From assembly GCA_017303715.1 (NCBI GenBank), contig JAFLBZ010000001.1:124001-188000 (forward strand): a stretch of 64,000 bases of DNA, in the 5' to 3' direction. Below are positions 5,817 through 7,846 of this stretch, one piece after another. The stretch comes from Rhodothermia bacterium (lineage in GTDB: Bacteria; Bacteroidota; Rhodothermia; Rhodothermales; UBA2364). A program made the position numbers and the translations under genes. The notes below the pieces were generated by a model. It was not told where the DNA came from. It did no database searches and saw nothing but the letters and a program-made list of their open reading frames with translations. Positions within the stretch are counted from its first letter, which is position 1. Every line of letters starts with the position of its first letter.

Positions 5817-6191
5817 TGTAGATAGTAGATTAAAAGGGGAATTGTTCTGAGAGCGTTTTATCCAAAATGCACAGCCCAAATCTAAACGATCTCTAACCTT
5901 CAAGATACCGCTAACCCAACATGAAGTCTGGTAATTTTCTATTGTGACTTCGTGATCTTTCCAAAAACCCGGAAACCACACCTATTTCTTTAAGAAGTGG
6001 GCTGTATTTTATTGCTCTTTGACAGGCTTCCTTTTTTGAACGATGCGGGTGGTTTACCAAATCGAGACTCAAATGAATCATAAATTTCATTTCGAGTCTC
6101 ATTATAGTTAAACGGTTTTGTTTTTTGATACATCTGAGGATTACGAATCTCAGTACAAAATACTGATCCATTAACCTACACCACCACCACA
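5817..6191. other. Intergenic region with a large inverted repeat (6064-6100)
   Basis: This region separates the minus-strand ALDH7 operon from the plus-strand peptide genes. I see no gene in it. It holds an inverted repeat whose arms at 6064-6077 and 6086-6100 pair over 14 bases (GAGACTC/GAGTCTC plus AAATGAA/TTCATTT) with one bulged base. There is no following T-run, so it is more likely an operator or RNA structure than a terminator. It lies about 90 bases upstream of the first peptide gene, where a divergent promoter pair would be expected. Confidence 0.5.
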
Positions 6192-6410
6192 ATGAACACA
6201 CTGACGTTAGCATCAGCAGCTGTTTATGCCTTAGACACTGCTGACGCGGAATTGGTTTCCGGCGGTTTTCGTCGCGCTCGCATAACTTACTTAAAACCCA
6301 CAGCCCAAGGGGTTATTTACCGTATTGTGACGCCGCCCTCGACGGCTTTGGCACCACCTACAAATGACCGATGTCAGAATGCCATCATTGGCGTGGATGA
6401 TCAGAGCTAA
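6192..6410 (+). CDS. Small peptide precursor with double-glycine leader (copy 1)
   Basis: A 72-residue protein, first of four tandem paralogs. The first 25 residues match copies 3 and 4 in length and pattern (M-x-x-L-x-L...A...AL) and end in SGG, a double-glycine processing site. The remaining 47 residues are basic and hydrophobic with an ITYLKP motif near the start and IIGVDDQS at the C-terminus, the latter identical to copy 4. It contains one Cys (NDRCQN). The gene has its own terminator hairpin 30 bases downstream. The leader resembles those of secreted or modified Bacteroidota peptides (GG-type natural-product precursors). No ABC transporter/C39 peptidase or modifying enzyme is in the window. 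Function unknown; the precursor call is inference from leader and paralogy. Confidence 0.6.
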   Translation: MNTLTLASAAVYALDTADAELVSGGFRRARITYLKPTAQGVIYRIVTPPSTALAPPTNDRCQNAIIGVDDQS

Positions 6411-6440
6411 ATAGATCACTACCCCAATATGCCACCACCC

Positions 6441-6466
6441 AGCCTCGTTCGCCACGGGGCTTTTTT
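6441..6466 (+). terminator. Rho-independent terminator after peptide copy 1
   Basis: AGCCTCG and CGGGGCT arms flank a short loop and are followed by six T residues. The hairpin sequence recurs in similar form after copies 3 and 4 (AGCC...GGGGCTTTT), so the 3' ends were duplicated along with the genes. Confidence 0.75.
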
Positions 6467-6529
6467 GTTTCCCTAAAAAGGACCTGCCCGTTGGAGGAAA
6501 ATGGTTTCCACAACTAAAACAATACCCAC

Positions 6530-6709
6530 ATGAAAAACTTGCCTCAAATCGCAACGTACAGACTTGGAAAAGACCAAGCTGACAACGTAAAAGGTGGCAT
6601 CACCAGAAAAGCCTATAGCCAAGTTACATACCTAAAAAAACCAAAACAAAACAATCCACGACGCGAAAACATGCGGGTGGTTTTGGATGAAAGTAACGAC
6701 ACTGTATAA
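6530..6709 (+). CDS. Small peptide precursor with double-glycine leader (copy 2)
   Basis: A 59-residue paralog. The leader is 23 residues (MKNLPQIATYRLGK..., ending DNVKGG), two shorter than the others. The predicted mature part of 36 residues contains SQVTYLKKP, the conserved motif shared with copies 3 (NQVTYRNMP) and 4 (SQVTYRSQP). Its C-terminus (VVLDESNDTV) differs from the IIGVDDQS of copies 1 and 4 but keeps the acidic pattern. No terminator hairpin is obvious after it. The start was chosen because the leader aligns with the paralogs from this ATG. No Cys is present. Confidence 0.6.
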   Translation: MKNLPQIATYRLGKDQADNVKGGITRKAYSQVTYLKKPKQNNPRRENMRVVLDESNDTV

Positions 6710-6919
6710 TACTACATCTGGAGGATATATCTTTCCCTAAAAAGGTTTAGTGCATTGGACGAAAAAAAGGGAGGTTTCGTCGAAATCTTGCTCATATAGA
6801 TCGAAGAATTAGATTGTGAAATGGCCGTAGCCAGTAGTTTCGGAACAGAAATCAGCGGGATTAACCACCTGCTCATCCAAAGACTACCTTCACAACCAAA
6901 CCAATCAATTTCAATCGCC

Positions 6920-7111
6920 ATGAAAAAGCTAAACCTCAAAAACGCCGTAAAATTTGCCCTTGGGAAAGAAGAGGCCAATGCCTCAAAAGGCGGCGTCAGC
7001 AAAAAAACAGGGGTGTATAACCAAGTTACGTATCGCAACATGCCCAGTACTGATCCTAAAAAGAATAAAAGGCGAGAAGGCTCCATTGTTAATTGCGACT
7101 CGCAAAGTTAG
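6920..7111 (+). CDS. Small peptide precursor with double-glycine leader (copy 3)
   Basis: A 63-residue paralog. The first 18 residues (MKKLNLKNAVKFALGKEE) are identical to copy 4, which fixes the ATG at 6920; the open frame extends upstream but without similarity. The leader ends ASKGG at residue 25. The mature part is strongly basic, carries NQVTYRNMP, and ends IVNCDSQS, with a Cys where copy 4 has Val-Asp. A terminator hairpin follows directly. A 124-codon antisense frame across this gene is a shadow. Confidence 0.65.
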   Translation: MKKLNLKNAVKFALGKEEANASKGGVSKKTGVYNQVTYRNMPSTDPKKNKRREGSIVNCDSQS

Positions 7112-7124
7112 GGTTCGTCACATG

Positions 7125-7155
7125 AAAAGCCTCGGTTCAATCGGGGCTTTTCTTT
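7125..7155 (+). terminator. Rho-independent terminator after peptide copy 3
   Basis: AAAAGCC-TCG and CG-GGGCTTTT arms form a strong hairpin beginning 13 bases after the stop codon and running into a T-rich stretch. It is similar in sequence to the hairpins after copies 1 and 4. Confidence 0.8.
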
Positions 7156-7595
7156 TATCGTTAAGTTTGAATCAAAATCGTCACCTCACAAACTTGAATT
7201 ATTGGTCTCAAAGCATTGTTATTAAATGAATAGGCTCTTTTTTAAAAATAGCTACTGCTTCTTTTGACCGTTCATAAAAGGCCATTGCTTTCGGTACGCC
7301 CATACTACCTCGTAGGAGGCTTCCACTCCAATGAGGCTAAATTTGCACCTCCTCGATGAAGTACATCAGCGCATTATCCATAAACCATTTCCGAATAATC
7401 ATGACGGCTGTTTAACCAACCGTAACGACATTACAAAAGGTTTAATTCATTCACCGAAGTGAAATCGGGTTTTATCGAACTATTCTGGTGGTACATCGAA
7501 TCGCGCCCCTTGAAGAAAAAAGGAAGTGGTAGCTTGCATCAGTCAGAGGACATCCCTGACCAAACAACAACCTCCATCTATAAAAATCTTGCGCC
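7156..7595. other. Intergenic region between peptide copies 3 and 4
   Basis: No gene or further GG-leader peptide is visible here in any frame. At 7215-7245 it contains a copy of a dispersed motif (ATTGTTATTAAATGAAT then GCTCTTTTTTAAA) that also occurs after other plus-strand genes at about 10134, 27256, 49537 and 50524. The rest is unassigned; it presumably includes the promoter of copy 4. Confidence 0.5.
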
Positions 7596-7793
7596 ATGAA
7601 AAAGCTAAACCTCAAAAACGCTGTAAAATTTGCACTTGGAAAAGAAGAAACCCAAACCGTTCAAGGCGGCACGGGCAGCCGGAAAATCAAAGTAAGCCAA
7701 GTAACCTACCGCTCCCAACCTGCCGCAACCCGTGTTGCAACCCCAAACCCCAGAAGAGCGGGTGCAATTATTGGCGTTGACGACCAGAGTTAA
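7596..7793 (+). CDS. Small peptide precursor with double-glycine leader (copy 4)
   Basis: A 65-residue paralog. It shares the first 18 residues with copy 3 and the last 8 residues (IIGVDDQS) with copy 1, so it links the members of the family. The leader ends TVQGG at residue 25. The 40-residue mature part carries SQVTYRSQP, several Arg and Pro, and no Cys. An ATG directly preceded by GCGCC is used; no clear Shine-Dalgarno is present. A terminator follows at 7821. The next gene, 130 bases on, encodes an M28 lipoprotein peptidase, but nothing shows a functional link. Confidence 0.65.
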   Translation: MKKLNLKNAVKFALGKEETQTVQGGTGSRKIKVSQVTYRSQPAATRVATPNPRRAGAIIGVDDQS

Positions 7794-7820
7794 TCAGTGT
7801 TTATCAGCATGAAAAGGAGA

Positions 7821-7846
7821 AGCCCTGCATTTGTGGGGCTTTTTTA
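7821..7846 (+). terminator. Rho-independent terminator after peptide copy 4
   Basis: AGCCC and GGGCT arms around a short loop are followed by six T residues, 28 bases after the stop codon of copy 4. This separates the peptide gene from the M28 peptidase downstream. Confidence 0.8.

What the first reader, a model, noticed from the sequence alone, without database searches (positions are those of the whole stretch)
6192..7793. Four tandem paralogous small peptides with double-glycine leaders
Four genes (59-72 residues) share a 23-25 residue leader ending in GG (SGG, KGG, KGG, QGG) and a downstream motif xQVTYxxxP (ITYLKP in copy 1). Copies 1 and 4 end in the same IIGVDDQS, copies 3 and 4 share 18 identical leader residues. 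Conserved leaders with divergent cores are the mark of exported or modified peptides (bacteriocin, signal or RiPP precursors). No transporter, C39 peptidase or modifying enzyme is in the window.
Basis: partly seen in the sequence, partly recalled or inferred. Interest (0 to 1): 0.75.

Follow-up and report, generated by a model that had tools for sequence, protein, structure and literature searches.

The report
Four exported peptides sharing wall-protein tail
A little-known bacterial genus carries four small genes for peptides that are very likely exported and trimmed by one transporter located elsewhere in the genome; unexpectedly, two of them end in the same short sequence that a cell-wall-binding protein of the same bacteria carries, and two are preceded by an unusual three-part genetic switch.

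Summary
Four ORFs (72, 59, 63, 65 aa) share double-glycine leaders and a core pattern. All four sit in the same place in two other species of the genus (one is MAG Bacteroidetes bacterium UBA2364) and were not found in 96 other genomes of the order or a sample of the phylum. Copies 3 and 4 are under strong purifying selection. Each genome has exactly one, unlinked, C39 exporter with an intact-looking active site, and all leaders carry Leu at -12 as such proteases need.

(1) The tail RRxG[AG][IV][IV]GVDDQ of copies 1 and 4 also occurs, in different codons, in a LysM wall protein in all three species (one to three copies in a linker), and once in a broken RHS gene. (2) Copies 3 and 4 each have three boxes at exactly 21-bp spacing, 29 bp before a Bacteroidota-type promoter, in all three genomes; the full module occurs nowhere else there.

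Most likely: secreted surface or matrix peptides, inducible, analogous to cyanobacterial EbfG proteins. Rivals: autoinducing pheromone, bacteriocin, RiPP. Secretion is well supported; the final function is inferred. New variant of a known kind.

The parts
6192..6410 (+). copy 1 precursor, 72 aa, 25-residue leader ending SGG, tail NAIIGVDDQS
6530..6709 (+). copy 2 precursor, 59 aa, 23-residue leader ending KGG; least conserved, truncated in G002
6920..7111 (+). copy 3 precursor, 63 aa, leader ending KGG, strong purifying selection
7596..7793 (+). copy 4 precursor, 65 aa, leader ending QGG, tail NPRRAGAIIGVDDQS
6363..6407 (+). tail motif of copy 1 (NDRCQNAIIGVDDQS)
7746..7790 (+). tail motif of copy 4 (NPRRAGAIIGVDDQS), shared with the LysM protein at G000:C4:126353-126526 (-)
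6759..6805 (+). three HCGAA direct boxes at 21-bp period upstream of copy 3
6835..6840 (+). promoter-like TAGTTT element of copy 3, 29 bp after the third box
7454..7500 (+). three HCGAA direct boxes at 21-bp period upstream of copy 4
   Evidence: conserved island
7530..7535 (+). promoter-like TAGCTT element of copy 4, 29 bp after the third box
6441..6467 (+). intrinsic terminator after copy 1
7124..7157 (+). intrinsic terminator after copy 3
7819..7846 (+). intrinsic terminator after copy 4
   Evidence: hairpin followed by a T run

Best explanation
A genus-specific family of four small secreted peptides. Steps: (a) [shown] four conserved precursor genes, two of them under strong purifying selection; (b) [strongly inferred] the single, unlinked C39-ABC exporter binds the leaders (Leu-12, mostly Val-4), cuts after GG and exports basic cores of about 36-47 residues; (c) [inferred from conserved DNA] copies 3 and 4 are separate transcription units switched on by an activator that sits on three boxes two helical turns apart, as LytTR-type regulators do; (d) [inferred] the mature peptides are disordered surface or matrix components whose RRxG[AG][IV][IV]GVDDQ tail engages the same partner, or the same kind of assembly, as the tail copies in the secreted LysM wall protein. 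The closest working analogue is the cyanobacterial EbfG1-4/PteB system (four GG proteins exported by a C39 transporter for biofilm), not a classical bacteriocin.
For: Conserved, syntenic and constrained in three species. One C39 exporter per genome, catalytic residues aligned, Leu-12 in all 12 leaders, as in the LahT co-crystal. Three boxes, 21-bp period, then 29 bp to TAG[TC]TT, six sites of six; the full module occurs only at copies 3 and 4. Tail motif shared with a LysM protein in all three species in different codons, nothing else above noise but one RHS gene. Core predicted disordered. EbfG precedent.
Against: No transcription, secretion or binding data. The exporter is unlinked to the peptide genes, so the pairing rests on there being only one. 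Position -7 is Ala/Thr/Gln/Ile, not Leu, and copy 3 has Ser at -4. The box sequence is not the LytTR consensus and no regulator is assigned. Copy 3 carries only a modified tail and copy 2 hardly any, so the tail cannot be essential to every member. The box pattern was chosen after seeing the alignment.
Confidence: 0.45

Rival explanations
1. Peptide pheromones in an autoinduction loop: the exported peptides are sensed by a histidine kinase/LytTR response regulator that activates copies 3 and 4 through the triple boxes, as in ComC/ComE or plantaricin systems.
For: 21-bp period direct repeats close to the promoter are the LytTR layout (9 bp + 12 bp, PMC6193735); boxes precede the peptide genes themselves; 8-11 LytTR proteins per genome.
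Against: No receptor/regulator gene beside the cluster; LytTR genes examined have no such boxes upstream; box sequence differs from the LytTR consensus; four different cores and a tail shared with a wall protein are unusual for a pheromone.
Confidence: 0.25
2. Bacteriocins: a set of basic antimicrobial peptides exported against close relatives.
For: GG leaders, basic cores with calculated charge about +2 to +5, several paralogues, C39 exporter.
Against: No recognisable immunity gene nearby, each core strongly conserved between species for copies 3 and 4 rather than diversified, proline- and charge-rich disordered cores without an amphipathic helix in the prediction, no match to known bacteriocin families.
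Confidence: 0.15
3. RiPP precursors, modified by enzymes encoded elsewhere before export.
For: Bacteroidota GG-leader precursors with C39 exporters are often RiPPs (PMC10352776); the conserved VxYR and tail positions could be modification sites.
Against: No tailoring enzyme among the flanking genes and no precursor family match. Enzymes elsewhere in the genome were not searched for.
Confidence: 0.1
4. The shared tail is not a functional tag but an old duplicated or inserted segment that has been moved between genes.
For: The RHS copy is a roughly 16-residue insertion in a loop of a gene that is now broken, and the LysM copies expanded in tandem, which shows that the segment can land in, and multiply within, unrelated genes.
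Against: Between the peptide and LysM genes many codons differ while the residues are kept; a LysM copy is kept in all three species.
Confidence: 0.25

Closest known systems
EbfG1-4 / PteB of Synechococcus elongatus (PMC4997328, PMC9981879)
   Same: Four small GG-motif proteins encoded together, exported through a C39 cysteine-peptidase transporter, without homologues elsewhere.
   Different: EbfG genes lie beside the transporter gene and are cotranscribed; here the exporter is unlinked and copies 1, 3 and 4 end in their own terminators. The shared tail and the triple boxes have no reported counterpart there. No biofilm data here.
LytTR-controlled bacteriocin and pheromone promoters (ComE, HdrR/BrsR; PMC6193735)
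   Same: Direct repeats of 21-bp period just upstream of the promoter of peptide genes.
   Different: Three boxes rather than two, CGAA core instead of the LytTR consensus, regulator unknown.
LahA/LahT-type double-glycine precursors and PCAT exporters (PMC6363468)
   Same: Several precursors with conserved leaders and divergent cores; C39 domain aligns with LahT150; Leu-12 and Val-4.
   Different: Not Nif11-type leaders; no lanthionine synthetase nearby; exporter unlinked.

Membership tests
GG-leader peptides exported by C39 (PCAT) transporters | Leader of about 15-30 residues ending GG/GA with hydrophobic residues at -4, -7, -12 | tested here: met
   GG and Leu-12 in 12 of 12; Val or Leu at -4 in 9 of 12; -7 is Ala/Thr/Gln/Ile, so only partly hydrophobic
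GG-leader peptides exported by C39 (PCAT) transporters | A C39-ABC exporter with catalytic Cys, His, Asp in the genome | tested here: met
   one per genome, unlinked
GG-leader peptides exported by C39 (PCAT) transporters | Cleavage after GG and secretion | not testable with these tools
   needs protease assay or mass spectrometry
Class II bacteriocins | Antimicrobial activity with a dedicated immunity gene | tested here: not met
   no recognisable immunity gene among the flanking genes; activity itself not testable here
RiPPs | Known precursor family | tested here: not met
   no NCBIfam or Pfam match up to E 10
RiPPs | Tailoring enzyme in the gene neighbourhood | tested here: not met
   nine flanking genes plus the M28 gene are unrelated enzymes; the rest of the genome was not searched
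LytTR operators | Direct repeats with 21-bp period (9 bp + 12 bp) just upstream of the promoter | tested here: met
   six of six sites; layout as in PMC6193735
LytTR operators | Repeat sequence close to the LytTR consensus | tested here: inconclusive
   core is CGAA; read by eye, only some units contain GTTTAT; the paper notes low sequence conservation of such repeats
LytTR operators | Binding by a LytTR protein | not testable with these tools
   8, 10 and 11 candidates in the three genomes
EbfG-type biofilm proteins | Sequence homology to EbfG1-4 and a role in biofilm | not tested
   claimed only as working like them

The most novel reading that the evidence does not exclude
The RRxG[AG][IV][IV]GVDDQ tail is a new portable surface-docking or assembly tag: peptides exported by the C39 route and a LysM wall protein exported by a signal peptide carry the same tag, so that the peptides are fixed to, or compete at, the same site on the cell surface, two of them under a triple-box inducible switch.
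Probability: 0.3. Interest if true: 0.75.

Novelty: new variant of a known kind. Interest (0 to 1): 0.5.

Why it matters
GG-leader peptides without a neighbouring exporter are easy to miss or to label as orphan bacteriocins. Here three related genomes tie such peptides to a single distant exporter, to a dedicated promoter architecture and to a wall protein carrying the same tail. If the tail is a shared tag, it links two export routes at the cell surface and gives a concrete, testable function (envelope or biofilm matrix) to a class of peptides usually assumed to be antibiotics.

Tried and rejected
Curated families (NCBIfam, Pfam, PDB): nothing. Rfam in the cluster: only a sub-threshold hit. 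Plasmid relatives: none. Idea that the tail is a recently copied DNA element: rejected for peptide versus LysM because codons differ; still possible for the RHS copy. Raw count of triple HCGAA: not beyond the reversed-pattern control in G000, because both also occur in genes coding for repeats; only the full module with promoter is specific. Boxes upstream of the LytTR, LysM and C39 exporter genes: none in the DNA examined. Structure prediction: disordered, so no fold search was made. A profile of all four copies had no stretch conserved enough for the genome-contig search.

Full report
WHAT IS THERE. The four ORFs are as described: 6192-6410, 6530-6709, 6920-7111 and 7596-7793, all on the + strand. 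Aligned, they share M1, L6, L14, the GG pair and several core positions; with orthologues the invariant core residues are V36, Y38, R53 and D62 of copy 4, so the core pattern is VxYR ... RRxx[AGM][IV][IV]GVDDQ[SN]. Copy 2 has lost most of the tail and copy 3 has a modified one.

RELATIVES. A profile of the four finds only these four in the window's genome at a meaningful E-value. In 98 related genomes it finds four copies in each of the two other species of the genus and nothing convincing in 96 others of the order; a profile of copies 3 and 4 over 394 genomes of the phylum adds only weak hits (E about 0.006 or worse) inside long ORFs. One relative is Bacteroidetes bacterium UBA2364: contig DDTM01000116.1 has the length of G001:C57, and its motif-bearing peptide is the G001 copy 4. 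Flanking genes are the same in all three (aldehyde dehydrogenase before, M28 peptidase and rhomboid after). In G002 the cluster is split over two contigs between copies 3 and 4, and copy 2 is truncated.

CODING AND SELECTION. Between species, differences in copies 3 and 4 fall mostly at third codon positions; dN 0.04-0.22 against dS 0.44-2.3. Copies 1 and 2 are less constrained. The last 30 or so bases of copy 1 are almost identical in DNA between species, more than the protein alone needs; I have no explanation.

EXPORT. Each genome holds exactly one C39 peptidase domain, in an ABC-exporter-sized frame; in G000 the Pfam scan shows C39, membrane and ATPase domains. In G000 and G001 an HlyD gene lies next to it; in G002 I did not read the neighbours. 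The C39 domain aligns with LahT150 (6mpz, E 1.5e-19) and ComA, with Cys, His and Asp in place. All 12 leaders have Leu-12 and Phe/Tyr-14, and Val or Leu at -4 in nine. [quoted passage not shown] position -7 is not Leu here. With no second C39 exporter and no other member of the peptide family in the genome, this pairing is the most economical, but it is an inference.

THE SHARED TAIL. Searching with the family brought up weak hits in unrelated long proteins, which proved to be one motif: RRxG[AG][IV][IV]GVDDQ. It occurs in copies 1 (as RCQNAIIGVDDQ or RRQNAIIGVDDQ) and 4 of all three species; in a protein with a signal-peptide-like start and five LysM stretches, as three tandem 20-residue units in G000 and G002 and one in G001; and once in an RHS/YD-repeat gene in G000. 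A profile of the motif finds nothing else above noise in the three genomes. Many codons differ between the peptide and LysM genes, so residues rather than DNA have been kept. In the LysM protein the motif lies in a linker of otherwise variable sequence, while its last copy is conserved; matches to this protein in other families of the order cover only its later LysM part. In the RHS gene the motif is an extra stretch of about 16 residues in a loop compared with paralogues, and that gene is interrupted by a short repeated element.

THE SWITCH. Copies 1, 3 and 4 end in intrinsic terminators, so they look like separate units. Upstream of copies 3 and 4, in all three genomes, there are three direct boxes HCGAA at exactly 21-bp spacing, followed after exactly 29 bp by TAG[TC]TT, which resembles the Bacteroidota TAnnTTTG element (PMC9723704). 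Upstream of copy 4 this is a conserved island in an otherwise unconserved spacer. Two boxes plus 29 bp plus TAGYTT, without mismatch, occur exactly twice per genome, each time at copies 3 and 4; with one mismatch, hits are no more than the control. I chose the pattern after seeing the alignment. A partly independent check: a matrix built only from the peptide sites scores a third triple box in G001 and G002 as high as its own sites; it lies between a secreted-protein gene and a 5'-nucleotidase-like gene, without the promoter element. A 21-bp period close to the promoter is the layout of LytTR operators (9 bp + 12 bp, PMC6193735), and 8, 10 and 11 LytTR proteins exist in the three genomes, but the box sequence is not the LytTR consensus and none of those genes has boxes upstream in the DNA examined.

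READING. Secretion through C39 is well supported. For function, the lack of an immunity gene and tailoring enzyme next to the cluster, the conservation between species, predicted disorder and a tail shared with a wall protein favour a surface or matrix role, like EbfG1-4/PteB in Synechococcus (PMC4997328, PMC9981879). A pheromone loop is the strongest rival. I put the composite best explanation at 0.45, with secretion alone near 0.8. The rivals overlap in part (a tail of no function is compatible with any of the others), so the confidences need not add to one.

LIMITS.

Noticed in passing
L056:9238-9300; also L264, L265, L261: A short repeated DNA element (ATTCCGCTTCGCTCCAT...CTCGTGTGG) interrupts several RHS genes of G000 and G002, in most cases right after the GLDYF codons, and breaks the frame.
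   Followed up: partly
L223 1501-1547 (+), L230 1547-1501 (-): A third triple 21-bp box, conserved in G001 and G002, between a secreted-protein gene and a 5'-nucleotidase-like gene; a short stretch with no clear ORF and a terminator-like hairpin follows, perhaps a small RNA.
   Followed up: partly
window 6150-6192 and 6375-6405: The DNA just before copy 1 (ACCTACACCACCACCACA) and its last 30 bases are almost identical in three species, more than the coding need.
   Followed up: no
L055:1-1540 (G002:C26): In G002 unrelated genes lie upstream of copy 4 at the contig break, so an insertion or an assembly join may separate copies 3 and 4 there.
   Followed up: no
L056:9274-10077: The motif-bearing RHS gene continues, after the frame break, into a C-terminal Ntox33 domain.
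   Followed up: no
L054:9131-9268: Copy 2 of G002 has lost its normal C-terminal half through a frame change.
   Followed up: no
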